Of a stretch of DNA of 64,000 nucleotides, positions 29,606 through 58,649 are shown piece by piece. Each line of letters begins with the position of its first letter. Position 1 is the first letter of the stretch. Below the pieces are notes generated by a model. It was not told where the DNA came from and did no database searches. It saw only the letters and a list, made by a program, of their open reading frames with translations. A program made the position numbers and the translations under genes. The stretch comes from Thiomicrorhabdus sp. Milos-T2 (GTDB lineage Bacteria > Pseudomonadota > Gammaproteobacteria > Thiomicrospirales > Thiomicrospiraceae): NCBI RefSeq assembly GCF_000702325.1, contig NZ_KL370891.1, forward strand, positions 890,917 to 954,916, in the 5' to 3' direction.

Positions 29606-30556
29606 ATGAAAATATACATCGGCATAGACATCAGCAAAGACACCTTTGACGTAGCGGTTTCAACTCAAAAGCAAAGTGTCACTTTTAATAACACCCCAGC
29701 GGGGTTTAAAAAGTTTATCAAATGGATGAGCCTTTTTGATTCTCCACACATCGCGATGGAAGCCACCGGGAAATACTATTTAGGCCTCGCATTGCATCTT
29801 TACGAACAAGAATACCCTGTGTATGTGATCAACCCATTTAAAATCAAACATCATGCACAATCCAAACTAAAGCGTGTTAAAACCGACAGTGAAGATGCTA
29901 AGCTCATCGCAGATTTTTGTGAAGTACACAAACTCAAACCTTGGCAGCCTGACAGTCCGATTATCGCTAAGCTACAAGAGTTCTCAGCACTTCAATCCTT
30001 GTTAATTCAAACAAAAACCCGCATTAAAAACCAAATGCAAAGTTCGACAGAAATTGAAGTACAGAAAATTCAAATAGCTCAGATTAAACAGTTAGAAAAG
30101 CAGATTGAAAAGATTCAATCCCAAATGAAAGGCTGCGTTCAACAGGATGTTGAATTGGCTAAGCAGATGGCATTATTAAAGTCCATTAAAGGACTGGGTG
30201 AAAAAACAGCGATTGAACTCATCACTCATATCAAAGACATTTATCGTTTTGATAATGCAAAGGCCTTAGCCTGTTACTCTGGTCTTGTTCCACAAATACA
30301 GCAATCGGGTAGTAGTTTAAATCGCTCATCGCTTTCAAAAATGGGCAATGCAAATTTAAGGAAGTGTCTCTACATGCCTGCGGTAAATAGTATTGCATAC
30401 AACCCTGTCTTAAAATCCTTTGCAGACAATCTGAGAAAAAGAGGGGTTGCAGGTAAGAAGATAGTTGCCGCGGTAATGCGCAAATTAATTCATCTGGTTT
30501 ATGCTATTCTGAAGAGTGGTAAACCCTTTGATCCAGAATATAAGATTGGTGCTTGA
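29606..30556 (+). CDS. IS110-family transposase (copy 2)
   Basis: A 316-aa intact DEDD recombinase, the same as the minus-strand copy except for His at KHHAQSK and Ser at LKSFADN. Motifs are GIDISKDTFDVA, AMEATGKYY, KTDSEDAKLIADF and GSSLNRSSLSKMGNANLR. It stands inside the split HD-domain gene and reads in the same direction, so its transcript can run on into the HD half. Confidence 0.95.
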   Translation: MKIYIGIDISKDTFDVAVSTQKQSVTFNNTPAGFKKFIKWMSLFDSPHIAMEATGKYYLGLALHLYEQEYPVYVINPFKIKHHAQSKLKRVKTDSEDAKLIADFCEVHKLKPWQPDSPIIAKLQEFSALQSLLIQTKTRIKNQMQSSTEIEVQKIQIAQIKQLEKQIEKIQSQMKGCVQQDVELAKQMALLKSIKGLGEKTAIELITHIKDIYRFDNAKALACYSGLVPQIQQSGSSLNRSSLSKMGNANLRKCLYMPAVNSIAYNPVLKSFADNLRKRGVAGKKIVAAVMRKLIHLVYAILKSGKPFDPEYKIGA

Positions 30557-35191: not shown

Positions 35192-36070
35192 TCAGATTAA
35201 GTTTAAACTTTTAAATTTCATAAACCCGCTATGGAAACTCAAATTTACTTTAGCATTTTTACCTCTTTTATTCTTGGTTATTACAAGCTCTAATGCTTTA
35301 TCATGAGATGAGTTTAAGGAAGGTAGTGGGTTGAAATCATGTATTTTAATTCCAAAGTCGACGAAATCTAGAACAGATTCGTAATGATATTCCCTAATAT
35401 ATGTATTCTGCTCAATAATCTCTTTTTGAAAGGTTTTAGAGTTTGATGAAAAAGCTAAAATAGGAATGTTAAGAGTCATTGCTAGCTCCTTTAATGCCTT
35501 CAGGCTTTTGGTGATTTGAGTGCTATATTTCTTGTTAAGGTGTAGATCATCAATAACAATTAAGTTAACGGAACTTTCTGTATCTTCATTTATTGAAAAA
35601 GTGTGGTCAAGTTCCAGAGATAAAGCTAATTCTTGGAGCGCTTTGAGTGATGTGGTTTTTCCAGGGTGAATTGTTACTTTCCAATTGTCACTAAACGTTT
35701 TTACGGCTTTGTTTAATTTAGGCCAATCTTCTTCTTTAATTCGACCTGCCCTTAGTCTATCAATATCAATCTCACTATTTAAAGCCATAATTTTAAGCAT
35801 GATTTCTTCATTTTTATCACCATTGCTTACAAATAGTGTAGATGCTCCTTGCATAGAAAAATTATGGAGTAGATTAACTGCCAAAGCTGTTTTCCCTGAT
35901 GCTGCAGCCCCTTGAAATAAAACAAGGTCTCCACCTTGAAGGTTCCATAGAGCTTCATCTAATGCATCAAAACCGGTATAAAAAGTGTTTTTATCTTTTT
36001 CTTCATTAAACCTTCGGTCCAAATCATTAACAAAATTTTCCAATAGTTGCTCAGTATTAAATGTGCTCAC
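35192..36070 (-). CDS. DnaB-like RecA-fold ATPase lacking the DnaB N-domain
   Basis: A 292-aa protein. Walker A is QGAAASGKT (residues 53-61) after TGFDALDEALWNLQGGDLVLF, and LRAGRIKEEDWPKLNKAV mirrors the DnaB stretch before the sensor helix. Walker B is NLIVIDDLHL. The C-terminal ELVITKNKRGKNAKVNLSFH corresponds to the DnaB DNA-contact end. So it is the helicase core alone, possibly a loader, a replicon helicase or a KaiC-like switch. It starts with GTG six bases after AAGGGA. A regulon operator sits 78 bp upstream. Its function is unproven. Confidence 0.72.
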   Translation of the reverse strand: MSTFNTEQLLENFVNDLDRRFNEEKDKNTFYTGFDALDEALWNLQGGDLVLFQGAAASGKTALAVNLLHNFSMQGASTLFVSNGDKNEEIMLKIMALNSEIDIDRLRAGRIKEEDWPKLNKAVKTFSDNWKVTIHPGKTTSLKALQELALSLELDHTFSINEDTESSVNLIVIDDLHLNKKYSTQITKSLKALKELAMTLNIPILAFSSNSKTFQKEIIEQNTYIREYHYESVLDFVDFGIKIHDFNPLPSLNSSHDKALELVITKNKRGKNAKVNLSFHSGFMKFKSLNLI

Positions 36071-36101: not shown

Positions 36102-36164
36102 ATTTTAACAACTAGGTATATTTGAAAATATAGCAAAATAGGCGTTAGCGACAAGTGTTGTCGT
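36102..36164 (-). promoter_or_regulatory. Island regulon operator 1 with -10 (ATPase gene)
   Basis: GCGACAAGTGTTGTCGT at 36148-36164; 40 bases toward the gene stands TAAAAT (36107-36102, minus strand). The repeat arms CGACAA/TTGTCG are perfect. Confidence 0.75.
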
Positions 36165-36285
36165 TACTGCTCTTTTAATCATTTAATTAGTTATGCTAAA
36201 AGATAAAATGTGATTAGTGCTAAGGCCTGAAAACACTAGACACTTTTTATGGTAAAAATTACATTAACCGTAAAAAGGAATAACC

Positions 36286-36490
36286 ATGGCCAAAGGCATT
36301 TATTATTCAGAAGAGTGTAAATAAGAAGCAAGTAATTATGTTATTCATCATAACTTTCCTGTAGCCGAGGTCACAGAGTGATTCTGTATCTCATCTAAAA
36401 CTCTTTGGAAATAGGTTAAAACTTTTTCCAGCTTCTAAAAAAGACTTGATGAGGTTGCTTTTGAGCTGAATAATAGGCTAGAAGATACTT
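36286..36490 (+). pseudogene. IS3-family OrfA relic
   Basis: The reading MAKGIYYSEECK-stop-EASNYVIHHNFPVAEVTE-stop-FCISSKTLWK corresponds to the helix-turn-helix of IS3 OrfA (YSEEFK..A...V.E.G.SVAEVA..LGVS...L..W). Several stops are present. The rest of the gap to 36659 shows nothing I can name. Confidence 0.7.
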
Positions 36491-36659
36491 AGGGTTTAAA
36501 AAGCTATATCAAGAAATTAGCAAGATGCTGTGGTGACGGGTTGAATCCTCTGCAGGGTTCTTTGACAACGAGTCAAATAACGATAAGCTTTCATAAAAAC
36601 TCGTCAGAACAATTACTCCGTTCGTATTTTGTGTTCGGCTTTGTCGGTTCAACCTATTG

Positions 36660-37673
36660 TTATTCTTTCTGATTAATTGAGTAGAGTTTGCTAAGTGCTT
36701 GACTAGCATTAATAAATTCTTGTCGAAGGAAGGTCGGTTCTAACACTTCGATGTCTGCCCCAAAACCATTAAGCCACCATCTAAGTTGCTGTGTGTTATC
36801 AACTGATGCCGTTACTTCATATATTTCATCATCCAGTTTTAAAATCGATTGATTCTCTGATAATTTTACTTCTTCTAAATGGTTAGCAATCCACTTATTG
36901 GTTCTGATCTTTAAAACCATTTTTTTGTTTGAATCTTCAATTGGAAAATGAAACTGACCGCCATCTATATAGTCTTTTAAAGAAAAGCTACTTGTTTGAA
37001 TATTTGAGGTCTGCGTGTTTTCTGCCTTTATAAAACGATGCAGAGCAAATTGCCGAACATCTTGATATTTCCATAAAGTACCAACTAAATAAATTACCTG
37101 ATCCACAATTACAATACCCAAGGGGTTGATGGTGTAATCTCTAGGCTCCTCTAGTTTAGGTTGGTAGTGCGTTTTTATCTGTGTTTCTGAAAGAAGTGCC
37201 AAGTAAATCACTGAGAGAATTTCATTCTCTATTTTAGGAGCAATAAGTGGCTGAGACCGGTTAATGGTTGCAACCTTATCTGACCAACTTGATAGTTCAT
37301 TCTGTTTTAAATTACCAAGTAATTTGTCAGCATTTGAAAAGTAGGGTGAGAGTTCTGACAGCACACTCGGAGGCATAAATTTCTTAAGATGTGTTTTAAC
37401 CATCTGAAAGCTTAATGCAACGGTTGGTTCCATTTCAGGAAGTTCAAGCTTTTGAGCGTCTCTTCGCCAATACCAACCTGGAATGTCTTTATTGCCATCG
37501 TTTTCAATCGGGAATAAATTCGCCAAAGATTTGAGGTCTCGTTGTAATGAGCGACGATCTATAACAAAGCCTCGACCGCTAAGTTCTTCTAATAATGTAC
37601 TGACTGATTTTCTTGCAGGGGCTTTTGGTAGAAGTCGTAACGTTTGAATTTTTCGAAAACAGGCATCGTTCAT
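36660..37673 (-). CDS. WYL-domain transcriptional regulator
   Basis: A 337-aa regulator. An N-terminal winged helix (RKIQTLRLLPKAPARKSVST...IDRRSLQRDLKSL) is followed by the WYL domain at about residues 155-235 (HYQPKLEEPRDYTINPLGIV, IYLVGTLWKYQDVRQFALHR) and a WCX-like C-terminal part (LRWWLNGFGADIEVLEPTFL). Family members such as BrxR and CapW bind inverted repeats and control phage-defence operons. It diverges from the double-AAA gene, with operator 2 between them 32 bp from its own start. By position and family it is the best candidate to bind the five GCGACA repeats; autorepression would follow from operator overlap with its own promoter. Confidence 0.88.
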   Translation of the reverse strand: MNDACFRKIQTLRLLPKAPARKSVSTLLEELSGRGFVIDRRSLQRDLKSLANLFPIENDGNKDIPGWYWRRDAQKLELPEMEPTVALSFQMVKTHLKKFMPPSVLSELSPYFSNADKLLGNLKQNELSSWSDKVATINRSQPLIAPKIENEILSVIYLALLSETQIKTHYQPKLEEPRDYTINPLGIVIVDQVIYLVGTLWKYQDVRQFALHRFIKAENTQTSNIQTSSFSLKDYIDGGQFHFPIEDSNKKMVLKIRTNKWIANHLEEVKLSENQSILKLDDEIYEVTASVDNTQQLRWWLNGFGADIEVLEPTFLRQEFINASQALSKLYSINQKE

Positions 37674-37704
37674 TGCATTTTCTCATAGTTCATTAAATTT
37701 AGTG

Positions 37705-37768
37705 GCGACAACTAATGTCGCTTACTGTGTCATGTGTGGTTATTATTTGTCTTTGTTAAGCTTATACT
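37705..37768 (+). promoter_or_regulatory. Island regulon operator 2 with -10 (WYL / AAA intergenic)
   Basis: GCGACAACTAATGTCGC at 37705-37721, then 41 bases, then TATACT at 37763-37768 for the AAA gene. There is no good -35, as expected if an activator bound near -62 is needed. For the WYL gene the site overlaps the likely -35. Confidence 0.78.
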
Positions 37769-37809
37769 CATTTCTAAGAAAAGTAAATTGTAGTTGTAAG
37801 AGGTAAATT

Positions 37810-39939
37810 ATGAAAAAGTTGTTGGGTCAAAATAATAATCAGGTTGCTTGTTTTGATTACCCTGAGGATGAAGTGCTTGCGTTTTGGGCTGCTAAAATAC
37901 TCAGCTTTTCTCATGTTAAAAAGGGCCTATTAAAACCAGTCAAAAGGTTCCGAAATCATATTGACTTTGATGACATTGAAATCATTTTAAACCTCAACTT
38001 TGAAAAGGTGGATGAAGAGCTAAAAGGGCATTTGGTGGTTGAGTTTTGCAATCAATTTTTAAAAAATCATAAACAGTCTCAATTGGTTTTTCCATCGGCA
38101 TTCAATTGTAATCTTGAAGTCTTAGCTAAAACACTGGAACTGTCAAAAATTGATATTGCAGTCTTAAGATTTTTTACCATTTTTGAAGCCAATCGGTCGC
38201 TTAGAGATATTGCAAGTTTTCTCGGGGAGTTAAACCGTCGACAGCTCATTGAAACGCTAGCTTGGGTGTTGGATGAAAAGCAAAGTCAAATATCAGAGGC
38301 GCTTTCAATGAACTCTGTTTTGGCGCAAACTGGTTTGGTGAGAATAGATCGTAGTGGTGTGGATGAACTGAATCGCAAAGTAGATGTTATGTCGCGTGCG
38401 GTGGATTTTGTTATGACCCCCCAGGCAGATACTCAAGAGTTGCTTTACTCATTTTGTCAACTTAGTGGCTTACCATTGCTCTCATTGAAAGACTATCCGC
38501 ATTTAAGCGAAAACACAGCAGACATTGTTGATTACCTTAACCATAATCGACATAAAGGCATGAATATCTTGATTTATGGTCAGCCAGGAACAGGTAAAAC
38601 CCAATGGGTGAAATTGGTTGCACAACTTTTAAATAAAACCTTGTATGAAATTCGTTCAGAAGATGAAGACGGCGATATGGTCACAGCGCAAAAACGTGTT
38701 GGAATGTATCAACTGGCTCAAAGAGCCCTAAAACAACAGACTGAAGCGGTACTGTTGTTTGATGAGGTGGAAGATGTGTTTGTATCACACAATACAACTT
38801 TTTTTAAACGCGGTATACAAGGTAGTCAAAGCAAGTCTTGGTTAAATACTTTGTTGGAGGAAAACTCGGTTCCGGCTTTTTGGATCAGTAATCAAGTCGA
38901 TCAAATTGATTCGGCCTATTTGCGACGTTTTGATTTTGTGTTGGAAATAGAAACGCCACCAAGAAGTGTGCGTTTACAGATTATTGAAAAAACGTTTAAA
39001 AATTTAAATGTGAGTCAATCTTGGATGAAGGCTTTGGCAGAACATAAATGTATCACGCCAGCACTGATTACCCGGGTGGCTGAGGTAGTCATGAAAACAC
39101 CTACTTTGCAAAACGTAGAACAAGCCGTGCTTGAGTCAAAAATTATGGAACGAATCAATGCCAAACTGGAAGTTCAAGGAACAAAAGCGATTCAACCTCA
39201 AAAAGCCAATACTGTTGATTATTCGTTGGAGTTTCTAAACACCGAGATGGATTTAAACGACTTGGTAAGTGGCTTACAGCAAAACCCTACCGGTCGATTG
39301 TGTTTATATGGCTTGCCGGGCACCGGCAAAACTGCATTTGGGCACTATGTCGCACAGCAATTAGATCGACCTCTGATGGCTAAGCGTGCATCAGATTTAC
39401 TGTCACCCTATGTGGGAGAAGCAGAAATGAAAATTGCCAAAGCTTTTGCTGAGGCTAAAAAAGAAAACGCCGTTTTACAAATTGATGAGGCCGACAGCTT
39501 TCTTCAAAATAGAGAAAATGCTCAGCGCAGTTGGGAAGTGACTCAAGTCAACGAGCTTCTTACTCAGATGGAAAACTTTGAAGGTGTGCTGATTGCCTCA
39601 ACCAACTTAATGGATAATCTGGATTCTGCTGCTATGCGTCGATTTGATCTTAAACTCGAATTCAAACCGCTTGCACCGGAGCAAGCTTGGAAGTTGTTTT
39701 TGAAAAGTCTGCCGGCATCAGTATTGTTAAAAGATACGGCTGAATTCAAAAGCAAGATTAAAAACCTAAGTGTTTTAACGCCTGGAGACTTTGCGGTCAT
39801 AAACCGGAAAAATAGGCTTTCTGGCCAACAAATGACGATTGAAAAAATTTTCAAGGCGTTAGAAGAAGAGTGTAAATTCAAACCGAGCTACCAGCGTTAT
39901 CAGGGAATGGGGTTTATGTGTGATTTAGCTGCGTCTTGA
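37810..39939 (+). CDS. Protein with two AAA+ ATPase domains
   Basis: A 709-aa protein. About 200 N-terminal residues without a recognised fold are followed by AAA+ domain 1 (Walker A GQPGTGKT at residue 257, Walker B VLLFDEVEDVF, arginine-finger region LRRFDF) and AAA+ domain 2 (Walker A GLPGTGKT at about 501, Walker B VLQIDEADSFL, sensor IASTNL, MRRFDL). Both domains look catalytically complete and are of the classical FtsH/CDC48-like clade, so the protein is likely a hexameric remodeller or unfoldase. No protease domain is fused. RBS AAGAGGT. Controlled by operator 2. A defence or plasmid-like role is suggested by context. Confidence 0.8.
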   Translation: MKKLLGQNNNQVACFDYPEDEVLAFWAAKILSFSHVKKGLLKPVKRFRNHIDFDDIEIILNLNFEKVDEELKGHLVVEFCNQFLKNHKQSQLVFPSAFNCNLEVLAKTLELSKIDIAVLRFFTIFEANRSLRDIASFLGELNRRQLIETLAWVLDEKQSQISEALSMNSVLAQTGLVRIDRSGVDELNRKVDVMSRAVDFVMTPQADTQELLYSFCQLSGLPLLSLKDYPHLSENTADIVDYLNHNRHKGMNILIYGQPGTGKTQWVKLVAQLLNKTLYEIRSEDEDGDMVTAQKRVGMYQLAQRALKQQTEAVLLFDEVEDVFVSHNTTFFKRGIQGSQSKSWLNTLLEENSVPAFWISNQVDQIDSAYLRRFDFVLEIETPPRSVRLQIIEKTFKNLNVSQSWMKALAEHKCITPALITRVAEVVMKTPTLQNVEQAVLESKIMERINAKLEVQGTKAIQPQKANTVDYSLEFLNTEMDLNDLVSGLQQNPTGRLCLYGLPGTGKTAFGHYVAQQLDRPLMAKRASDLLSPYVGEAEMKIAKAFAEAKKENAVLQIDEADSFLQNRENAQRSWEVTQVNELLTQMENFEGVLIASTNLMDNLDSAAMRRFDLKLEFKPLAPEQAWKLFLKSLPASVLLKDTAEFKSKIKNLSVLTPGDFAVINRKNRLSGQQMTIEKIFKALEEECKFKPSYQRYQGMGFMCDLAAS

Positions 39940-40116
39940 GTGGCATGAAGATCGGTTTGAGTTAACGGTTAATGAAAGATTTTCTCACCAGTGATTTATA
40001 TGCACACCCATCCTAATTTTCGTGGTTGATAGCGCACCAAGCAAAATTTAATGTACTGCGCATTTTAGAACTTAGCATAGGGTTCAATTGAAGATATTGG
40101 GTTGCTTATATAAATT
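39940..40116. other. Intergenic, no gene seen
   Basis: Between the AAA gene and MITE copy E; no recognisable signal. Confidence 0.4.
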
Positions 40117-40275
40117 GAGACCTTTGCACGATAATATGAACGAGTAAAAATGGTTAAAATTCACCTGATTTTTGTTGGAAAACTTGCGAATAGCTAGCTA
40201 TTCCCTTGGTTTCCCGCCGCAATCAGGCAAATTCCCCCACATTTTTCATTCGCACCTATTTTGTGTAAAGTTCTC
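40117..40275 (-). repeat. GAGACC inverted-repeat element (MITE-like), copy E
   Basis: The most worn full copy (right end TGTAAAGTTCTC). The central palindrome GAATAGCTAGCTATTC is still perfect, and a 5-bp duplication AAATT flanks it. Confidence 0.88.
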
Positions 40276-40335
40276 AAATTATTATTTGTCACGGCATCTT
40301 TTCTTCAAAATCTTTCAATATAGAGGTGGTTTAAC

Positions 40336-41157
40336 ATGAAGTCTGAACATTATTATTCCGAAAATGAAATACCGTTAAAAAAATATTATGTTTATTTGCT
40401 GATCGATCCAAGGGACGATTCAGTTTTCTATGTTGGCAAAGGGCAGGGTGATAGAGCTTTACAGCACGCAAAGTTAGCAAAGGACAATTCTGAGAACGCA
40501 AAAGAGAGCCAAATTAAAGACATCCAATTAAAGGGGCTAACTGTAAAAGAATTAGTGATAGGGCGGTATGATTCCGAGTCTGAGGCTTTTGCTGTAGAGG
40601 CAACATTAATTAAATGGGTTTACGGCTTTAAAAACCTTACTAATTCGGTTCAAGGGCACCATTCTAAATCGATTCGATTTTTTGGAGACTACGAGCAAGT
40701 TGACAATATAGACATACCCGTCAAGAAATACACTAACGATGGTCAGTATACTGAGTCATATAAGAAACTCGTTGTAGAAAATAATGTCATTGAATCAGTT
40801 GAGGATTTACGAGATTATTTTATTCAAAGAACTCAAGGGTTGGAATTTTCCGCCGTGGACGATAAAGACCCCAGGTTTGTTCTGTTCAGATGGCTTCATA
40901 AAGGCTTAAGTATAGCCATTGCAAGACCGCCGACTAAAGCAAAGTTTTCAGTTATCTTATCCTCTCCACATGGCACAAAAGATGAAAAAGAACAAATTTT
41001 AAAAATATGTGAAGTTTCAAGTTTTAATTCAAAAAAATATGGAGATTATGCCCGGTATACACCGGATACAAAATCTGAAGACTATCAAGTTTTATTGGAA
41101 GGTTTCTTTGAGCAAAAGCGTGTGTTGGAAGATTTTTTTAGTGGTAAAAACCATTAA
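40336..41157 (+). CDS. GIY-YIG domain protein (LEM3-like)
   Basis: A 273-aa protein. The N-terminal domain YYVYLLIDPRDDSVFYVGKG with DRALQHAKLA is the GIY-YIG nuclease fold of the LEM3-like group, in which GIY reads VYL and YIG reads YVG. The conserved downstream Glu is probably in SEAFAVEATLIKWVYG, followed by LTNSVQGHH. The C-terminal 150 residues are unrecognised. GAGGTGG precedes the ATG. There is no regulon operator upstream; MITE copy E lies just before it. It is possibly a DNA-cutting effector of the neighbouring AAA protein. Confidence 0.75.
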   Translation: MKSEHYYSENEIPLKKYYVYLLIDPRDDSVFYVGKGQGDRALQHAKLAKDNSENAKESQIKDIQLKGLTVKELVIGRYDSESEAFAVEATLIKWVYGFKNLTNSVQGHHSKSIRFFGDYEQVDNIDIPVKKYTNDGQYTESYKKLVVENNVIESVEDLRDYFIQRTQGLEFSAVDDKDPRFVLFRWLHKGLSIAIARPPTKAKFSVILSSPHGTKDEKEQILKICEVSSFNSKKYGDYARYTPDTKSEDYQVLLEGFFEQKRVLEDFFSGKNH

Positions 41158-41225
41158 AAATAATAACTAGACAACAATCTGGTATTTATCAGGCCAAGTG
41201 CGAAATACTGAACCATAAGAAACAT

Positions 41226-41480
41226 TTGAATGCTGGTATCTATCTTTTTGATGACAGACTAGCGAATGGCGGTAATCGATTTAGTGGCGAGCTCTTAAAT
41301 ATCAAGCCAAGTAATGAGCAACCTTTCGGCTGTGATAACTGGAGTGATGTTCATGGTTATTTGCACCGTAATTTACAGTTAGAGCAATACAGCTATGATT
41401 ATAATGATCTTGTGTTGATCAGAGAAGCTTGGCTTGACTGCAATTCTTTAGGTGCTTGCAATCAAGGCCGTCTGGAATAA
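41226..41480 (+). CDS. Unknown small ORF or gene remnant
   Basis: 84 aa, MNAGIYLFDDRLANGGNRFS onward. The frame appears to continue a slightly longer coding-like stretch from about 41170 and has no good ribosome site, so it may be the end of a decayed gene. No family is recognised. Confidence 0.35.
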   Translation: MNAGIYLFDDRLANGGNRFSGELLNIKPSNEQPFGCDNWSDVHGYLHRNLQLEQYSYDYNDLVLIREAWLDCNSLGACNQGRLE

Positions 41481-41661
41481 ATATGACCATTACCTTGATA
41501 ACACGTGCATCAAATTCAAGGGATGCAGTCAGTAAGTGATATTGCAAAGGTAATTTAAAACATGATTGTAGAGCAATTTCCTACTGTGAAATAGCAATAT
41601 GCCTAGCATGTAACATGCATTCAGTCTATAGAGCGCAACCTTTCTTTTTGTAGCTCTAGTA

Positions 41662-41725
41662 GCGACAATTAATGTCGTTACCAAGTTAAATAAGGGTTAA
41701 TTATTGGTTATATTTAGATTATACT
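41662..41725 (+). promoter_or_regulatory. Island regulon operator 3 with -10
   Basis: GCGACAATTAATGTCGT at 41662-41678, 41 bases, then TATACT at 41720-41725; exactly the spacing of operator 2. The -35 region (TTAATT) is poor. Confidence 0.78.
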
Positions 41726-41746
41726 CATAGCAAAAAGGAGTTTGTT

Positions 41747-42388
41747 ATGAGTCATCAATCTGATAAGACGCAGTTTCCTAAAACCTTATTACAAAAACAG
41801 ATAGAAAGTGCTTTTCTAGCAGTGAATATAGAATTGATTGCACATCAACTTGGCTATAAGCTAGAAGCTTTCCAACATCGTCTTTCAAAGCATTTAAATA
41901 ATTCATTTCTAGGTCTAGATCAAAGTTCTTTTGATTTTAAATATTCCGGTGCAGAGTTTCTTAAAGCCTTAGCTACTGAATTGAAGATTGGTCAAAAAGT
42001 TGTGATTGATTCACTCGATTGTATTGATCGATTTCTTTCAAAGTGCCAGCAATCAAAGGTAAGTCTTTTTGTGGTGACAGACTTTGATATCAGCAAACGT
42101 CGTTTGCCAATTTTTGCGCTTGCATGTTTAGAACATAAGAGAAGGAAAACCTTTGGTTGCGATGAGTTTATTGATAACAAAACACAAATGTTAGATTATG
42201 TTTCGTTTTGGGTAATCGATCATTATCAGCATTACCAAGGAGTCCTTGATGAATGGGGAGAGATTCAATCTTACCTTTATACAAATGAAGACGGAGACCA
42301 TTTTCATTTTTCTCCGAAGGGATATTTTCATCAAATAAAAGAAGATGAAAAACTCCTCAAATTATCTAAAGCCAGTGTTTCAATCTAG
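41747..42388 (+). CDS. Unknown protein, regulon member
   Basis: 213 aa, no family recognised. The N-terminal half looks helical (LLQKQIESAFLAVNIELIAH). The middle holds KVSLFVVTDFDISKRRLPIF, which has the look of a beta strand plus acidic turn. The C-terminal end has VSFWVIDHYQHYQ and DGDHFHFSPKGYFHQ. AAGGAG precedes the ATG. It forms a pair with the next gene (11-bp gap) under operator 3. Confidence 0.72.
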   Translation: MSHQSDKTQFPKTLLQKQIESAFLAVNIELIAHQLGYKLEAFQHRLSKHLNNSFLGLDQSSFDFKYSGAEFLKALATELKIGQKVVIDSLDCIDRFLSKCQQSKVSLFVVTDFDISKRRLPIFALACLEHKRRKTFGCDEFIDNKTQMLDYVSFWVIDHYQHYQGVLDEWGEIQSYLYTNEDGDHFHFSPKGYFHQIKEDEKLLKLSKASVSI

Positions 42389-42399
42389 AAAGGTCAAAT

Positions 42400-42870
42400 A
42401 TGAAAACCAAAAGAATTATTCCAAATTATGCCCCTTGGATTCCATTGGATAAGCGCATTAGTTTCCCTCCAAGAAAACCCGAACTTCGTCGGCCTCTATT
42501 GTGGTTAGCACGGGAAGGTGATGAGCTATTTCTAGTAAATGAAACAGACGAGATATTGGATAGCGTTATTGTTCAGAAGGGTGGGTTTCAAACCGTTGAT
42601 GACGAAGCTTTTACCCTCTCTTCTGATGAATTTTATGACTATAAAAATGTTAATCCACATGATGCTGTAAAAGTTGATGAATATGATGGCCTTTACGATT
42701 TAGATTTCATGATTCAAGTGCATATAAAAGTCAAATCCAGAGGTTTAGGATGCCTTGAGATCACCTCGCCAGCAGAAAAAGGTGGGGTAAAAGAGACGGT
42801 TCTGATCTGGGATACAAACGAATCAGGAAAATATGTCAATGTTTCCAATTGTGAGGCGCTACCAGCTTGA
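42400..42870 (+). CDS. Unknown protein, second gene of the operator-3 unit
   Basis: 156 aa, beta-rich and acidic: LLWLAREGDELFLVNETDEI, then TVDDEAFTLSSDEFYDYKNV and VHIKVKSRGLGCLEITSP. No catalytic motif or membrane segment is seen. It is spaced 11 bases after the previous stop. The family is not recognised. Confidence 0.7.
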   Translation: MKTKRIIPNYAPWIPLDKRISFPPRKPELRRPLLWLAREGDELFLVNETDEILDSVIVQKGGFQTVDDEAFTLSSDEFYDYKNVNPHDAVKVDEYDGLYDLDFMIQVHIKVKSRGLGCLEITSPAEKGGVKETVLIWDTNESGKYVNVSNCEALPA

Positions 42871-43007
42871 GTTTTATCTTTACTTGGAAAAGAACCAAGA
42901 GCTAAATTGGCGAACGTTTATATTCCCAATAGGTTTCTACTAAAGAGATTTCATGGCGGTTTGAATATATATACCATTCATATCAATAATTTAGTCAAGG
43001 GACTCGA

Positions 43008-43232
43008 ATGCAAACGATTAAATACCTTAAGAACAGTTTTCATTATTTAGGTAGTGGCTCAGATATGGCACATCATTCCTTTGATGCCTTTTCGATAGAC
43101 GATAAAATTCATATTGTCTATTCACTGGGTATGAAAGAGCAATCCGTTGCGAAACGAAAGAAAAAAAATCTAAGGTTAAATCCCGATGCTTATTTATGGA
43201 CGCCTTTTGCTGCTTTTATTTACTCTGATTAA
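43008..43232 (+). CDS. Small unknown protein, intact copy of a duplicated gene
   Basis: 74 aa, MQTIKYLKNSFHYLGSGSDM through YLWTPFAAFIYSD. AAGGGACTCGA lies before the ATG. A diverged second copy with a frameshift lies at 46289-46514; both copies share the upstream AGGACTCGA and downstream sequence, so about 250 bp was duplicated. The conservation of the coding part suggests a real gene. Confidence 0.6.
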   Translation: MQTIKYLKNSFHYLGSGSDMAHHSFDAFSIDDKIHIVYSLGMKEQSVAKRKKKNLRLNPDAYLWTPFAAFIYSD

Positions 43233-43354
43233 TTGAATGTTAAAAACTTTAGACACACTTTTTAACGAAGTGTATAGATTTGAATGGTCATGAAAATTAA
43301 TGATGTCTAGTCGCGATGAAACGTTTATATGTTGTAGAGTAATGTCTTAAAACC

Positions 43355-43720
43355 AGAAGCTATGGCTTTAGTAACTGAACAAGGCTTCAGCGTCTCAGAA
43401 GCGGCCACCAAAAGGCTTAGTTTTCCACTTAGGTCATGTTCCGTAATATACCAATAAACACTTTAGAAAATGGCTGGAACAATACAAAATTAGAGCCAGT
43501 ATGAGCGATGTTGGTGCTTGTTTGGATAATGCCGTTGTTGAACGTTTTTTAGTCAGCCTAAAGCATTATTGGATGTTAAAAATTTATCAACCCACTCGCA
43601 AACACATGAAAAAAGATGTGGCAGAGTATAGAAATATTACAACTTGAATAAGTTTCATAATGCTAATGGTGACTTGTCACCAATAGAATATGAAAATTCT
43701 TTAGGAAAATTTCCTAATGG
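43355..43720 (+). pseudogene. IS3-family element relic (OrfA and OrfB pieces)
   Basis: KPEAMALVTEQGFSVSEAA is an OrfA helix-turn-helix; RASMSDVGACLDNAVVERFL with SLKHYWMLKIYQPTRK is the end of the DDE domain of OrfB (DNAVVERFF..LK.E). A shifted frame continues with the LSPIEYEN end. Internal deletion and frameshifts make it dead. Confidence 0.82.
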
Positions 43721-43808
43721 AATTGAGCAGAATATTAGGTTATTTGCAGCATAATTTAGACATTACGATTATTACTTGAATCCGCAATGTCTAAAATACG
43801 AAAGACAT

Positions 43809-44228
43809 TTAGCAATTATCTTCAATTTTTTGTTTCATTGAATCAGCAAGCTCATCATTTTTTAATACATTATTGACAAAGTAAATTATTGATTGTGCCT
43901 CATCACAGTCTTCAGCATTAATAATTTGAGTAATTAAGGTTTCGCAAGTTTCACCAAGAGTATCATCTTCCATAAGATTATTTTGTTTGATGAATTCTGC
44001 AAATGTTTCAAAATGGTAATAGGCTTCTCCAGCGATCATCATTCCAATCATAGTAGAAATAGCATCTGAACAGGTGTCAAAGTCAGCTTCTAATAAAGCT
44101 TCATAAACTTCAAGGTCACAAAAAATATCATCTTTTAGTGTTTCAAGATGTTCACCCTCTAAATAGTTATATTCTTCGATTTCATTCAGAATTTCTTTCC
44201 ATTCGCTATTTAGCTCCTGCATATCCAT
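43809..44228 (-). CDS. Very acidic small protein, possible DNA mimic
   Basis: A 139-aa protein with about 36 Asp/Glu, about 6 Lys and no Arg by my count, spread through the whole chain (LNEIEEYNYLEGEHLETLKD; NAEDCDEAQSIIYFVNNV). It looks all-helical. Such charge is seen in DNA-mimic anti-restriction proteins and in some regulators; no family is recognised. Operator 4 lies 150 bp upstream, and a second palindrome AGTGTAATTTACACT is in the predicted leader. The location beside McrBC and nuclease genes makes a modulator role plausible. Confidence 0.72.
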   Translation of the reverse strand: MDMQELNSEWKEILNEIEEYNYLEGEHLETLKDDIFCDLEVYEALLEADFDTCSDAISTMIGMMIAGEAYYHFETFAEFIKQNNLMEDDTLGETCETLITQIINAEDCDEAQSIIYFVNNVLKNDELADSMKQKIEDNC

Positions 44229-44283
44229 AGTGTTTTCCTTTAATTTTTATTTACGTAGTTTTTAAAATTCGCGCTTTCAAGTA

Positions 44284-44298
44284 AGTGTAATTTACACT
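44284..44298. promoter_or_regulatory. 15-bp palindrome AGTGTAATTTACACT
   Basis: Perfect inverted repeat (AGTGTAA/TTACACT) in the predicted 5' leader of the acidic-protein gene, about 56 bases before its start. It is followed upstream by two and a half tandem copies of ATTAATAATTAAA (44301-44336). Confidence 0.45.
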
Positions 44299-44330
44299 AA
44301 ATTAATAATTAAAATTAATAATTAAAATTA

Positions 44331-44394
44331 ATAATAACGCATGTCATTTAATTTGAAAAATAAAAGACACCATAATAGCGACGCTAATTGTCGC
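44331..44394 (-). promoter_or_regulatory. Island regulon operator 4 with -10
   Basis: On the minus strand, GCGACAATTAGCGTCGC (44394-44378), 41 bases, then TATTAT (44336-44331). One arm has a single mismatch. The AT-rich surroundings make the -10 less certain than at operators 2, 3 and 5. Confidence 0.62.
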
Positions 44395-44547
44395 AATTAA
44401 TATGTAATGACCCAGCGGATTTTGCATTTATTTACGATTGGACGAGAACAAAAAATGACGAAATTAACCTTTAATTCATATCTATGCTATGGATTAGAGT
44501 TGGAGTCAGCGCTATTGGCGGTCTGGCTGATTTTGGCTAGGAATTGA

Positions 44548-44740
44548 TGTATGTTCAACCTGGCCAACCTAAAGGGTTCATATTAACGGTTTAATCGAAG
44601 TGTTCTGTATGAATGGTTTAACAATACCTTTTAGAAAATATTTAACCATCACAAGAGTTAACCACAAATTTCTATTCGACGTGCATTAACGAAGAATCAA
44701 ATGCTGCTGCAATAGGTGGTGTAGCACCTTCATTTTATTG
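44548..44740 (+). pseudogene. IS3-family OrfB relic (second)
   Basis: Pieces QPGQPK, RFNRSVLYEWFNNTF and NEESNAAAIGGVAP in different frames match the C-terminal DDE region of IS3 transposases (PGKPQQNAYIERFNRTVRYEW...NHERPNMALGGVTP). Several stops and frameshifts. Confidence 0.65.
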
Positions 44741-44853
44741 GAGTAAAAAATAAAGTTATCTCTGATTTAATGACTTAATATTCACATAATATTTCTTTAT
44801 TCTCATGTCTTAAAAGTTAAGAGCGACCACTCAGAATAAATCCTTACTTGGTT

Positions 44854-44916
44854 GCGACAATAGTTGTCGTTATGTAGCTGGTTGAGAGTCTTGTTTTGTT
44901 TTTTATTATTTATAAT
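44854..44916 (+). promoter_or_regulatory. Island regulon operator 5 with -10
   Basis: GCGACAATAGTTGTCGT at 44854-44870, 40 bases, then a perfect TATAAT at 44911-44916, upstream of the 378-aa gene. Confidence 0.76.
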
Positions 44917-45010: not shown

Positions 45011-46147
45011 TTGAAAAGATTAAAGTTTTTAGCCAAGAGATATGGTCATAAGGTCGCTGCGCAATACCTTTCTAATGAAACAAAAAGAAAACATCAATTA
45101 GAACAGAGAATCGTTAATAAGATAGCTGAACTAGACCCAACCAAAGGCAAACGATATACACAATGGTTATTGCGTGAATATATTGTCGGTGCATTTGACT
45201 TGAAAACCATTAACAAAAGTGAAGTCAGACAAAGGTTGGTGGATTTTGAACGATATAGCATCATGCTATCTTCAAAGGATATCGGTACCTATAACTGGCG
45301 TAAACTGATTAAAAAATTAGAACCTTACCAAAATGTTATGGGAGCAGAAACACTTTCTAATAGAGAGGTTCAAAGACTTTATAGACAACGTTTAGTTGAC
45401 ACTTTAGCTGTGCACATCTGGTATGAAAACAAAAAAATAAAAACCAAAGTGATTCAACTGCTTTCTGAAGAGGCGGCGATTTACTATGGCAAAGGAACTC
45501 GTTGGTGTGTGTCGGCTAAAAAGAACAATGCGTTTGATTACTACGCTAGCCTAGGCGATTTATTCTTTATTCAATTTAAGGGTAAGAAATTTTTGTTTCA
45601 AGTCTCTTTCTATTCTGACAAAGTCTCATTCTCTGTTGCCGATGCGAAGGATCAATTTCTTGTTTTTAGTGATAAAAGTGCAGGAATTTTCCCTTTTAGA
45701 AAAGAAGATATTGAGTTTGGACAAATAGTAGAAATATTGCTGGTTTGGTGTTCTTTAAAAAAAGGAATTTCGCTGCGTTTAAGTCGGGGGACTGTTTTTG
45801 AAGGTGAATCTATTAATGAAACACTAGTTAAAGGGTTAACTTTTAACTTTATTTTGAAAAATTCAAAGGTAACGGGTAGTACCTATAACAATGGGTTCTA
45901 CCTGCCAGATCGAAAACTAGATTTTATTCAAACTTTAGTGTCTATTAAACAAAGTTATCCAGACGAAATTAGGTATCGAATGCTCGCTCGCTTGTCATTC
46001 AACCCCCCCGAGTACTTATTTGAAGAGCTGGTTATTTGCTATCCATTTCTTATTTTTATTATGAACTATAAGAATAAACAAAAACTACAAGAGCTTGCTT
46101 CTGAGAGCAATGAGATAAACAGTTTTCTAGAAAATGAAGCTTACTAG
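45011..46147 (+). CDS. Unknown protein with GTRWC motif, regulon member
   Basis: 378 aa, TTG start after TTAGAG. The Lys/Arg-rich N-terminal half (MKRLKFLAKRYGHKVAAQYL) precedes a striking core AIYYGKGTRWCVSAKKNNAF then YYASLGDLFFIQ and FLFQVSFYSDKVSF. A GT.WC...N.F..Y......FI pattern of this kind is one I associate with uncharacterised phage proteins, but I cannot name a family. The C-terminal 150 residues are unrecognised. The end matches no nuclease motif. It is placed 141 bp after operator 5. Confidence 0.68.
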   Translation: MKRLKFLAKRYGHKVAAQYLSNETKRKHQLEQRIVNKIAELDPTKGKRYTQWLLREYIVGAFDLKTINKSEVRQRLVDFERYSIMLSSKDIGTYNWRKLIKKLEPYQNVMGAETLSNREVQRLYRQRLVDTLAVHIWYENKKIKTKVIQLLSEEAAIYYGKGTRWCVSAKKNNAFDYYASLGDLFFIQFKGKKFLFQVSFYSDKVSFSVADAKDQFLVFSDKSAGIFPFRKEDIEFGQIVEILLVWCSLKKGISLRLSRGTVFEGESINETLVKGLTFNFILKNSKVTGSTYNNGFYLPDRKLDFIQTLVSIKQSYPDEIRYRMLARLSFNPPEYLFEELVICYPFLIFIMNYKNKQKLQELASESNEINSFLENEAY

Positions 46148-46574: not shown

Positions 46575-49217
46575 ATGATTGATTTTGTTTTAGTGCCAGA
46601 TGGATTGTCGGGAAGTTTTGTCAGAAATAAACTTGCTAAATCCCGTCTGAATGGAGTGAAAGTTGGAAACTTTTCTGCTCTATTAGAAACGCTTAAATCC
46701 TTGTGGGTTTTTGATGTTTCTGATAATGATTGGGATAAAAAGCTTCTAGAGAGCGCTCTAATGATGGATTCAGCCTTTTGGTCTCAATCCATCTCAGTAG
46801 ATGAACAGAGTGTTATTCATCATTTAGATAAAAGTCTAAAACATATGCTCTCTGCTCTTCCCCTAAATGCTTCTTTCTCAAAAATCAAAAAGCCAGAAAG
46901 CAAATCAGAAAGATACTTTAATGATCTCGTGGACTTGCATAAAAAGATGCAGCGTATCAGACCGTTGAATCAAGAGGTAGCCAAAAAATGGTTGAACCAG
47001 GTCAACGGACTTTCTTTAGATACAATTAATCTATATTTGAATACAGAGTTGTTTCAGTTTGATACTTGGCAGCACGAAGTAATTAATGAATTGTCAAAAA
47101 ATGCAGAAGAACTAACTCAAAATCAGTCACTTATTCTCGATGTTTTAGAAAACACTTCTAACGAATACGAGTCTAAATTTTCGCCGTTAAAAAATTCTCT
47201 TTTCACTTCTAAAGACCCTATTGATATCCCGAATGGGTTTAATGGTTTAAAACCTCGTGATGATTTAGAGGCCTGTGAAGTTGTCGCCTCGATGATTCAA
47301 AAGGCAATCAAAAATGACATCTCTTTTGATGAAATAGCCGTGGTTTATCCTTCTGGTACAAATTACCCTATTTGGTTAGCAAAAGTATTTCAACAAGCGG
47401 GTATTAGCGTATCAAACTTACCCAGTCAGCAAACAGTGTTCGATTGGCAAACTGCATTATTAAGAGACTTAGTGCTTTTACAGGCTCAAAACACGCCACC
47501 TATGGCAAGAATGAGTGTTTTAAGTAATCCGTTGATGCCTTGGAGAAACCATAAATCTCGTATTTCAATTATTGAAAATGAGTTAGATGATAATGTCCGT
47601 GCTGTTGCTAATGAAATTTCAGAAGGATTTATTGATTTATTAGAACAAAAAACAAAAGACTCTAATGAAACTATTCAATGGTTAACAGAGATTGCAAAAC
47701 ACTTCAAACCTTTAAATGAACTAGGGCTAACGAATGAAAGATTTAATGATAAGTTAAAGCAGTTAGAAAGCTGGTTTGAGCTTTATGCCAAAGATTCTTT
47801 TGTTGAGCAGTGTCAAAAATTGCTAAATCAGTTGCAAGCGCATTCGATCAACTTGTCCTCTGAAAAAAATCATTACCTTAACGCTGTAACCGTTTTAGCT
47901 TCAAATGAAGTCTTATTAAAACCTGTCAAGCATCTATTTATAATTGGCTTTAATCAGGGGCATTACTCGTCAAATGCCTCTGCATTAGCGAGTAAAACGG
48001 TTCTAAATAACCAGGCCTGGTCATTATTAGGCAAAAAGGTTGGGTTAGATTTGAACTCCTTTGAACAAAAGGTGGATTTCGATCAATATCAACTTAAAGA
48101 ATTACTTGGTAAGGCACAAGAGAGTTTAACAATTTTAGCCTCTCAGCAAGATTTTGAAGGAGGGCGGCTGCACCTAAGTGAAACCGCTCTAGATGTAGCA
48201 CTTTGTTTTATGCCGCCTGAAAAAGTGGATCCGGATTCTTTATTTGAGACATTACCAAAAGCTAATCACCCTTTACTTGAGTTTGCAGAAGTCATTATTC
48301 CTGAACACGCTTCTATCAATATTGAAGACCTAGATTTAAAGACTAATATATTGAATTTACATACTGATGAAGACGGCAATCAAAGGTCAGAATCACCCAG
48401 TAGTTTTGAAACCATGATGGTATCTCCTTTAGCCTGGTTATTGGATCGTCAGGGAATTAAAGACAAGGGGTGGAATGTTCAAGAATTAGATGTCATGCTT
48501 CAAGGAACAGTGGCGCATAAAGTATTTGAATTGTTTAAAGAGAAGCAAGATAAAGCGTTTTCAGACAGTCTATACAATCAACTTTTTCAACAAGCAGTGA
48601 CTAAAGAGGCATCGTTTTTATTAGAGTCAGAATGGCGTCTAGAGCTTGTTCAACTTAAACAACAAGTTAAGCCAGCGTTTGAAAAATTCATTAGATGGTC
48701 GTCACAAACTGGTTGGCGAATTGCTGAGGTAGAGCAACGGTTCTCAGGTGAAATTTGGGGAACCCCTGTTAAGGGGTTTGCCGATGCGATACTGAAAAAA
48801 GAGACAAGTGTATTGGTGCTTGATTATAAAAAATCAAAATCTAAAGATCGCCTAACCCGACTGAGCCGTGGGTTCGATTTACAGACCTATATCTATCGAG
48901 AGCTTTATCAACAGCAATATGGCCAAACTGAAATTCATAGTGGTTATTACAACTTAAATGATCAGGTTATGGTACTTGACCAGATTCAAGCCGTTGACTC
49001 AGATATTAAGGTTGTTGCACCTGATATTAGTATTGAAGAGCAATCTGTTAAAGCACGCAATCTAGTGCAAAATCGCCTATCACAACTCCAATCTGGGCAG
49101 GTAGAGCTTAATAGTAATCAAGACCAAGCTAATTGGGAAAAAGAAGGTATTAAGGCTTACGCTTTAAAAGACAACCCCGTTGTGACCCGTTTTATGAAAG
49201 TAGTTGAGGGCGAATAA
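46575..49217 (+). CDS. AddB-like nuclease with C-terminal PD-(D/E)XK domain
   Basis: An 880-aa protein. The first 600 residues resemble an inactivated helicase scaffold of the AddB/RexB type with no Walker A GKT. The C-terminal 270 residues form a RecB/Cas4-type nuclease: QGTVAHKVFELF (His), KGFADAILKK (Asp), LVLDYKKSK (Asp-x-Lys) and GFDLQTYIYREL (Gln/Tyr motif). No four-Cys iron-sulfur cluster is evident. AAGGGA lies before the ATG. The next gene begins two bases after its stop, and the two probably form a complex. Chromosomal addB is not normally in such a place, so this is likely an accessory pair. Confidence 0.82.
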   Translation: MIDFVLVPDGLSGSFVRNKLAKSRLNGVKVGNFSALLETLKSLWVFDVSDNDWDKKLLESALMMDSAFWSQSISVDEQSVIHHLDKSLKHMLSALPLNASFSKIKKPESKSERYFNDLVDLHKKMQRIRPLNQEVAKKWLNQVNGLSLDTINLYLNTELFQFDTWQHEVINELSKNAEELTQNQSLILDVLENTSNEYESKFSPLKNSLFTSKDPIDIPNGFNGLKPRDDLEACEVVASMIQKAIKNDISFDEIAVVYPSGTNYPIWLAKVFQQAGISVSNLPSQQTVFDWQTALLRDLVLLQAQNTPPMARMSVLSNPLMPWRNHKSRISIIENELDDNVRAVANEISEGFIDLLEQKTKDSNETIQWLTEIAKHFKPLNELGLTNERFNDKLKQLESWFELYAKDSFVEQCQKLLNQLQAHSINLSSEKNHYLNAVTVLASNEVLLKPVKHLFIIGFNQGHYSSNASALASKTVLNNQAWSLLGKKVGLDLNSFEQKVDFDQYQLKELLGKAQESLTILASQQDFEGGRLHLSETALDVALCFMPPEKVDPDSLFETLPKANHPLLEFAEVIIPEHASINIEDLDLKTNILNLHTDEDGNQRSESPSSFETMMVSPLAWLLDRQGIKDKGWNVQELDVMLQGTVAHKVFELFKEKQDKAFSDSLYNQLFQQAVTKEASFLLESEWRLELVQLKQQVKPAFEKFIRWSSQTGWRIAEVEQRFSGEIWGTPVKGFADAILKKETSVLVLDYKKSKSKDRLTRLSRGFDLQTYIYRELYQQQYGQTEIHSGYYNLNDQVMVLDQIQAVDSDIKVVAPDISIEEQSVKARNLVQNRLSQLQSGQVELNSNQDQANWEKEGIKAYALKDNPVVTRFMKVVEGE
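48010..48021. repeat. ACCAGGCCTGGT palindrome (perfect)
   Basis: Inside the AddB-like gene, read as Asn-Gln-Ala-Trp. It is within the island, showing the motif also occurs in acquired DNA. Confidence 0.9.
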
Positions 49218-49219
49218 GA

Positions 49220-52423: not shown

Positions 52424-52506
52424 TGAAGTATTACGCTTTTTACTTTTCTCATAGTAATGATGAAAATTATGTATCAGCCAAATAGACATGTATCAAATGT
52501 TTGGTT

Positions 52507-52534
52507 ACCTACATGAATATGTAGTGGTCGTATA
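52507..52534 (+). promoter_or_regulatory. McrBC promoter region with 16-bp inverted repeat
   Basis: CTACAT-GAAT-ATGTAG (52507-52522) is a perfect inverted repeat that covers the expected -35 of a perfect TATAAT at 52529-52534. A regulator bound there would block or replace -35 contact. It is unlike the GCGACA operators. Confidence 0.55.
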
Positions 52535-52592
52535 ATAATAGTTTTATTTTTGCAAAAAAATGAATTGAAGACAGAACACACAAGAGACAGAT

Positions 52593-58596: not shown

Positions 58597-58614
58597 GTTA
58601 TTTATCCTTTTTCG

Positions 58615-58649
58615 CGGGGCATAAATTTTCATGCCCCGTATATGCCCCG
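58615..58649. promoter_or_regulatory. Candidate integrase arm-type sites, right end
   Basis: CGGGGCAT at 58615, and ATGCCCCG at 58631 and 58642 (11 bp apart), just upstream of the integrase start and inside attR. The first two could also form a hairpin. Confidence 0.45.

What the first reader, a model, noticed from the sequence alone, without database searches (positions are those of the whole stretch)
36102..44916. Island-wide regulon: five GCGACA-N5-TGTCGY inverted repeats at fixed distance from -10 boxes
Operators at 36148-36164, 37705-37721, 41662-41678, 44378-44394 and 44854-44870 stand upstream of five different transcription units (DnaB-like ATPase, double-AAA, 213-aa/156-aa pair, acidic protein, GTRWC protein) on both strands. 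In each case a -10-like hexamer (TAAAAT, TATACT, TATACT, TATTAT, TATAAT) begins 40-41 nt after the operator, and -35 boxes are poor. This centres the site near -61/-62, the class I activator position. The WYL gene lies beside operator 2 and its own promoter overlaps that site. Together this suggests one WYL-controlled system spread over about 9 kb, with genes of unknown function as co-members. The regulated set, rather than each gene, may be the undescribed system.
Basis: partly seen in the sequence, partly recalled or inferred. Interest (0 to 1): 0.9.

Follow-up and report, generated by a model that had tools for sequence, protein, structure and literature searches.

The report
Island-wide operator of a WYL activator
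Five scattered genes or gene pairs on one bacterial genomic island carry the same switch sequence at the same distance from their promoters, and comparison with relatives suggests that a single DNA-binding protein of the island turns them on together, probably as part of a stress or anti-phage response.

Summary
In detail: five GCGACA-N5-TGTCGY-type operators (one with a mismatch), each with a -10-like hexamer 40 or 41 nt downstream. In the 2.66-Mb genome the exact pattern occurs only in this island. Islands of relatives repeat operator and spacing, also when both sides of every site are scored blindly.

The operator follows one WYL family: 25 exact sites in 43 WYL regions, at most 2 for any of 89 permuted half-sites. 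In more distant relatives the -10 box starts 9-10 nt after it, about three helical turns closer; on the WYL tree the 40-nt design is concentrated in one clade. The operator shares its CGAC-N7-GTCG core with the published consensus of DriD, a WYL activator, and DriD is the nearest solved fold.

Best reading: a DriD-like WYL activator, acting near -61.5 (class I position), drives a regulon with a conserved core (WYL, double-AAA ATPase, sometimes a 213-aa family) and exchangeable cargo. Binding, activation, signal and anti-phage function are inferred, not shown.

The parts
36148..36164 (-). operator 1 (ACGACAACACTTGTCGC read on the minus strand)
   Evidence: stands before the DnaB-like gene on the minus strand
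36102..36107 (-). -10-like hexamer TAAAAT, 40 nt after operator 1
35192..36070 (-). 292-aa DnaB_C-like ATPase (target 1)
   Evidence: Pfam DnaB_C 3.3e-28; no match at 1e-30 in 61 other genomes of the order
36660..37673 (-). WYL regulator (wHTH-WYL-WCX, 337 aa)
   Evidence: WYL 2.4e-12, WCX 8.2e-11; model m105f37cb2787 nearest DriD and PafBC
37705..37721 (+). operator 2, perfect palindrome, between the divergent WYL and double-AAA genes
37763..37768 (+). -10-like hexamer TATACT, 41 nt after operator 2
37810..39939 (+). double-AAA ATPase, 709 aa (target 2)
   Evidence: AAA 3.7e-45; phrog_10401 6.7e-110; recurrent WYL partner
41662..41678 (+). operator 3
41720..41725 (+). -10-like hexamer TATACT, 41 nt after operator 3
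41747..42388 (+). 213-aa protein (target 3); family found in 6 of 369 class genomes, all 6 with the WYL family
42400..42870 (+). 156-aa protein, second gene of the pair
   Evidence: no Pfam, PADLOC, PHROG or NCBIfam match at 0.01
44378..44394 (-). operator 4 (GCGACAATTAGCGTCGC on the minus strand, one mismatch)
44331..44336 (-). -10-like hexamer TATTAT, 41 nt after operator 4
43809..44228 (-). 139-aa acidic protein (target 4)
   Evidence: only weak matches
44854..44870 (+). operator 5
44911..44916 (+). -10-like hexamer TATAAT, 40 nt after operator 5
45011..46147 (+). 378-aa protein with a GTRWC motif (target 5; start codon uncertain, TTG)
   Evidence: distant partial matches only: two PHROGs of unknown function, 11 Pseudomonas phage records of about 285 kb, a 59-residue match in the G015 WYL region

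Best explanation
The WYL protein (36660-37673) is a DriD-like transcription activator. A dimer binds GCGACA-N5-TGTCGC (core CGAC-N7-GTCG), centred near -61.5 upstream of sigma-70 promoters that have a fair -10 box and only a residual -35 (TT), and recruits RNA polymerase from the class I position, probably through the alpha C-terminal domain. Through five such sites it would switch on the island's double-AAA ATPase, the 213/156-aa pair, the acidic protein, the GTRWC protein and the DnaB-like ATPase together. The signal is probably single-stranded DNA or another damaged nucleic acid sensed by the WYL domain, and the regulon is probably anti-phage or damage-related. Shown by sequence: operators, spacing, their conservation, and association with the WYL family and the AAA partner. 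Inferred: binding by this WYL protein, activation, class I contact, ligand, function.
For: Exact sites only in the island. Related islands carry the operator in multiple copies. -10 peak at 40/41 with both sides of each site scored: 5 of 10 sides in the window (elsewhere up to 3 of 10); 18 of 48 in eight related islands, where no offset outside 38-42 exceeds 0.08. Automated target rule, window plus seven islands: 19 of 31 target sides against 3 of 25 others, Fisher p 2.6e-4; without the window 14 of 25 against 3 of 21, p 0.005. Operator tied to WYL genes: 25 exact sites in 43 WYL regions against at most 2 for 89 permuted half-sites; in the order, 11 of 14 exact sites lie in six genomes with the close WYL clade, 10 of them in the fetched islands. 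Spacing follows the WYL tree. Core CGAC-N7-GTCG shared with the DriD consensus ATACGAC(X)7GTCGTAT (PMC12340889, passages). Predicted WYL fold nearest DriD (2e-15) and PafBC (3e-13), ahead of CapW and BrxR. Recognition-helix/half-site trend. The WYL family is present in 12 of 21 AAA-bearing class genomes, P 2e-10.
Against: No binding or expression data. Of 31 hand-chosen target sides in relatives four fail (G023 11471 and 46222; G055 958935 and G057 10815 on the WYL side, boxes one nt off) and others are weak; under the automated rule 12 of 31 fail. The half-site/helix trend has two exceptions (G005, G011), L060 carries both types, and one-mismatch sites were inspected in only 13 chosen regions. 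In the window the WYL gene itself cannot follow the 40-nt rule. A few far loci score a box at 39-41 and a few near loci one at 9-11. One of 14 exact sites lies outside an island and three in genomes without a close WYL relative. The model has pTM 0.53 and TM-scores near 0.4, so the fold ranking rests on local domains. The -10 and -35 matrices used recalled E. coli-like frequencies.
Confidence: 0.76

Rival explanations
1. The WYL protein is a BrxR/CapW-like repressor that keeps the island silent until infection; the operators are repression sites.
For: Passages of PMC10693628 say that the WYL regulators identified in phage defence are repressors, and BrxR represses (PMC9122601, passages). Operator 2 overlaps or abuts any promoter of the WYL gene itself, so autorepression is plausible. 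BrxR sites also have a 5-bp spacer.
Against: All five sites lie well upstream of the -10, near -61.5, with fixed spacing and poor -35 boxes. The BrxR site lies downstream of its predicted -10. In distant relatives the operator replaces the -35, as in DriD. The fold is nearer DriD and PafBC.
Confidence: 0.12
2. Another regulator binds the operators; the WYL gene is a bystander.
For: No binding test exists. Three of 14 exact sites in the order lie in genomes without a WYL relative at E <= 1e-25. Two of six plasmid WYL loci looked at (Methylomonas, Pantoea) have no site at <=1 mismatch.
Against: The operator recurs next to WYL genes in several gammaproteobacterial loci, a Burkholderiales MAG and three Burkholderiales plasmids. 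Its core equals that of a proven WYL operator, DriD's. Half-site base 4 follows the recognition-helix residue in most loci.
Confidence: 0.07
3. The repeated promoters are copies of one mobile promoter cassette and the shared spacing reflects recent duplication, not selection.
For: G023 has two WYL genes and two double-AAA genes (one split), with near-identical promoter flanks at two pairs of sites.
Against: The 40-41 nt between operator and -10 differ among the window's five sites and among relatives apart from weak preferences.
Confidence: 0.03

Closest known systems
DriD of Caulobacter (WYL activator, ssDNA-sensing)
   Same: wHTH-WYL-WCX; operator core CGAC-N7-GTCG (stated consensus ATACGAC(X)7GTCGTAT); sites at constant distance from -10 with poor -35; nearest PDB fold. 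PMC12340889: passages and part 1 of the discussion seen. Aligned by hand, the -10 position starts 10 nt after the 17-bp frame in three of three printed promoters, as in the distant loci here.
   Different: DriD sites overlap the -35; here they are near -61.5. Only one printed promoter (driD) is close to the full palindrome (2 mismatches, 14 of 5000 shuffles as good); didA has 4, bapE 6 in the aligned frame.
PafBC and SiwR of mycobacteria (WYL activators of damage responses)
   Same: WYL activators; PafBC is a close fold match
   Different: Their sites lie near -24/-26, downstream of -35; not island regulons of this kind in the passages seen
BrxR/CapW family (WYL regulators of BREX and CBASS)
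   Same: WYL proteins of defence islands; BrxR binds inverted repeats with a 5-bp spacer
   Different: Repressors; the BrxR site is downstream of the predicted -10; weaker fold match
RptR (repressor of a phage-defence island)
   Same: One regulator over a defence island (PMC12255303, start of abstract and passages)
   Different: A repressor, named apart from the WYL repressors in the passages seen
CRP-type class I activation
   Same: Upstream activator site with weak -35 (type I range -41 to -81 given; -61.5 for CRP recalled)
   Different: Unrelated protein family
IetA (AAA ATPase of IetAS)
   Same: AAA domains of the double-AAA protein match
   Different: Score 136 against NCBIfam cut-off 510; two AAA domains plus an N-terminal region

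Membership tests
WYL transcription factors (wHTH-WYL-WCX) | WYL and WCX domains behind an N-terminal winged helix | tested here: met
   Pfam WYL 2.4e-12 and WCX 8.2e-11; three N-terminal helices and a strand pair in the model
DriD-type activators | operator core CGAC-N7-GTCG | tested here: met
   intact in five of five sites, read from the sequences; consensus
DriD-type activators | operator overlapping the -35 at constant distance from -10 | tested here: not met
   sites centred near -61.5 in the window; met instead by distant relatives
DriD-type activators | activation by ssDNA bound in the WYL domain | not testable with these tools
   H212 and R213 are invariant in 11 of 11 rows of two alignments; that they contact ligand is recalled
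BrxR/CapW repressors | operator downstream of or overlapping the -10 | tested here: not met
Class I activators | upstream site near -61.5 with weak -35 | tested here: met
   sequence only
Class I activators | contact with the RNA polymerase alpha C-terminal domain | not testable with these tools
   none
IetA anti-phage ATPase | whole-protein match above the curated cut-off | tested here: not met
   136 bits against 510
Known anti-phage system (PADLOC) | the regulated genes match a catalogued system as a whole | tested here: not met
   ten proteins between 35192 and 54272 scanned (GIY-YIG at 40336 not given): AAA to IetA models in part, helicase to GajB, WYL to generic WYL models, others weak or none

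The most novel reading that the evidence does not exclude
A family of WYL activators uses one operator in two promoter designs: over the -35 (as in DriD, probably ancestral) and, in one clade, about 30 bp or three helical turns further upstream in the class I position. In that clade the operator works as an address label by which a mobile island recruits unrelated defence or repair genes into one inducible regulon around a conserved WYL / double-AAA core. This would be an island-wide WYL activator regulon, where the WYL regulators described in defence repress.
Probability: 0.5. Interest if true: 0.8.

Novelty: new variant of a known kind. Interest (0 to 1): 0.68.

Why it matters
How bacterial defence islands are switched on is poorly known, and the WYL regulators characterised there are described as repressors. 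A readable operator with strict geometry lets unknown genes be assigned to one inducible programme from sequence alone, gives a direct way to find new co-members (the 213-aa family is one), and offers a natural pair of promoter designs for testing how a WYL activator was rebuilt from a -35-overlapping to a class I mode.

Tried and rejected
Viral contigs: scans with the WYL alignment, the double-AAA, the 378-aa and the 213-aa proteins gave no confirmed relative. The 213-aa protein gave no plasmid match and only two weak PDB matches (E 0.075 and 0.24); the WYL protein had no PDB sequence match. Idea that the GTRWC protein is a divergent PcfJ: a PcfJ-like protein lies beside an operator in G053, with clustered relatives in G054 and G055, but neither BLASTP nor profile comparison relates it to the GTRWC protein; dropped. 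A strict recognition-helix code was rejected because of exceptions G005 and G011. Literature searches for this operator, a class I WYL activator or a WYL/double-AAA/DUF2779 module showed no report in their listings; most subscription papers and bioRxiv are not covered. Target sides were chosen by hand; repeat the test without that choice. The first logo script printed no columns and was repeated. The second structure job and two of three fold searches were not used.
Full report
What is there. They stand before a 292-aa DnaB_C-like ATPase, a 709-aa double-AAA ATPase, a 213-aa/156-aa pair, a 139-aa acidic protein and a 378-aa protein. The WYL gene is divergent from the double-AAA gene, with operator 2 between them. 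The exact degenerate pattern occurs nowhere else in the 2.66-Mb genome; one other place matches the symmetric form with one mismatch.

Relatives. The WYL protein has relatives at E <= 1e-25 in 15 of 62 genomes of the order, the window's own included. I fetched up to 20 kb on each side of those, as far as the contigs go. Close relatives (53-61% identity; G023 twice, G054, G055, G006, G057, G016, G053) have one or more operators at <=1 mismatch in these regions, up to eight in G023, one of which lies inside a 456-aa reading frame. The two 48%-identical relatives (G027, G008) lack GCGACA sites at <=1 mismatch there but have one GCGTCA-type site each with a box at 41 nt.

Spacing test. With hand-chosen target sides, the 40/41 window is the best offset in the window's five promoters and in 31 sides from relatives, while 26 non-target sides show no peak there. 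Without any choice, scoring both sides of every site at <=1 mismatch: 5 of 10 sides in the window and 18 of 48 in eight related islands have a -10-like hexamer at 40/41, against 0.03 on average over offsets in the relatives. With an automated rule for a downstream start codon (45-250 nt): 19 of 31 against 3 of 25; without the window 14 of 25 against 3 of 21. Failures include G023 11471 and 46222, G055 958935 on the WYL side and G057 10815 on the WYL side. Aligned at -10, 26 promoters show the operator, the -10, TT at -35/-34 and weaker preferences at -52, -43 and +2/+3.

A wider family. The same palindrome lies near more distant WYL relatives: three loci of 30-34% identity in genome contigs, several of the 26 of 369 class genomes with WYL matches at E <= 1e-60 (identities not given), and four of six plasmid loci. 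A motif-free search for perfect 6-bp inverted repeats in the 250 nt upstream of 47 WYL genes returned GCGACA-N5-TGTCGC in 9; in the lists shown no other half-site recurred. In 43 WYL regions (1.08 Mb) it occurs 25 times exactly; the next best of the other 89 permutations of the half-site occurs twice. Not every WYL region has it: 11 of 42 tree rows gave no -10 call in either design, and seven of those had no site at <=1 mismatch.

Two designs. In the distant loci the -10 starts 9-10 nt after the operator: 18 of 30 sides of exact sites, against 0.06 on average over all offsets. That places the operator over the -35, centred near -31. The difference from the window's design is about 30 bp, close to three helical turns. 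On the WYL tree (42 rows, quick method) the 40-nt design dominates one clade of 13 rows (SH-aLRT 100 for 12 of them, 82 with G143), and the 10-nt design dominates the rest; contrary single calls exist (a box at 39-41 in G087, G206, G196 and L063, where G206 has no other; a box at 9-11 in G023, G054, G057 and L060).

Link to DriD. The DriD paper gives the consensus ATACGAC(X)7GTCGTAT, bound through arginine contacts to its guanines, and says that DriD sites overlap the -35 at the same distance from -10 in the promoters aligned (PMC12340889, passages). The core CGAC-N7-GTCG is that of the operator here, intact in all five sites. In the three printed promoters, aligned by hand, the hexamers CAAGGT, CAATCT and CAAGCC start 10 nt after the 17-bp frame, as in the distant loci; the frames have 4, 2 and 6 mismatches to the full palindrome, and only the driD one is clearly better than chance (14 of 5000 shuffles). 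So the distant loci look DriD-like, and the window's clade has moved the site upstream.

Is the WYL protein the binder? Evidence is indirect. The operator follows the WYL family rather than the genomes: 11 of 14 exact sites in the 62 genomes of the order lie in six genomes with close WYL relatives, 10 in the fetched islands, while the reversed-pattern control gives 6 scattered sites. Residue 42 of the recognition helix is S or T in all 16 loci with exact GCGACA palindromes (of 41 regions listed), and M, N, Q or K in seven loci with GCGTCA or mixed sites (exact or one mismatch; G166 also has a GCGACA-type site); G005 (T) and G011 (S) break the rule, and L060 (S) has one of each. One-mismatch sites were looked at in 13 chosen regions only.

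Core and cargo. The double-AAA gene occurs in 6 of 62 genomes of the order, all six with the close WYL clade. In the class sample it occurs in 21 of 369 genomes, 12 of which have the WYL family (hypergeometric P 2e-10; 1e-8 without G000 and G053); only the best three candidates per genome were scored. Of 24 distant double-AAA loci, 8 have a site at <=1 mismatch (11 at <=2) in up to 1.5 kb upstream, mostly with a box near 10 nt; one of the 11, G143, has a GCGTCA-type site with a box at 40; 13 have none. The 213-aa family occurs in 6 of 369 genomes, all six with the WYL family (P 7e-8; 1e-5 without G000 and G053), with an operator close upstream in five of six (one at two mismatches). A metallophosphoesterase follows in three of them, one by Pfam and two by eye. 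DUF2779 proteins recur (two by Pfam, others by clustering or annotation). Other genes beside operators, or in the gene runs behind them, include a SLOG/YspA protein with Sir2 and UPF0227, Sir2, GmrSD, Sel1 repeats, a sigma-70 region 4 protein and a PcfJ-like protein. Neighbours such as BREX-2 genes, McrBC, Mrr and GmrSD point to defence islands, but no anti-phage test exists.

Activator or repressor? Position, spacing, poor -35, the DriD-like operator and fold all favour activation. The model (pLDDT 77.5, pTM 0.53) matches DriD best, then PafBC, then CapW and BrxR. PafBC and SiwR act from -24/-26; BrxR represses from downstream of its -10. Passages of one paper say that defence WYL regulators are repressors and genotoxic-stress ones activators (PMC10693628). 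A class I WYL activator over an island was not found in my searches.

Verdict. A real, conserved, island-wide operator; most likely a DriD-like WYL activator regulon in a class I design, with a conserved core and exchangeable cargo. New variant of a known kind.

Noticed in passing
46575-55696: AddB-like PD-(D/E)XK protein and AddA/UvrD-like helicase, followed by McrB- and McrC-like genes; no operator at <=2 mismatches between 44871 and 55696.
   Followed up: partly
57334-58632: Phage-type integrase at the far end of the island, with a two-mismatch operator-like site inside the gene at 57410.
   Followed up: no
29606-30556: IS110-family transposase on the other side of the regulated genes.
   Followed up: no
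36286-36600 and 43280-43750: By eye, stretches that look like broken transposase remnants lie between the regulated units.
   Followed up: no
L023-L025 (G023): Two WYL genes about 32 kb apart, each near a double-AAA gene and operators, one AAA copy split, suggesting duplication of the module.
   Followed up: partly
L032 and L063: Tandem operators 60 bp apart (G006) and 33 bp apart (a gammaproteobacterial MAG).
   Followed up: no
L025:5917-6183: An 88-aa protein with sigma-70 region 4, matching the C-terminal part of a PADLOC MzaA model, lies beside an operator.
   Followed up: no
45011-46147: The GTRWC protein matches a stretch of about 150 residues in 11 Pseudomonas phage records of about 285 kb (30-32% identity), no other genome in a class sample of 369 at 1e-8, and 59 residues of a small frame about 1 kb from the WYL gene in G015.
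   Followed up: partly
L060: A Methyloprofundus MAG contig carries a 56%-identical WYL gene with a one-mismatch operator, in a different named genus from the other close relatives, which hints at transfer or mis-binning.
   Followed up: no
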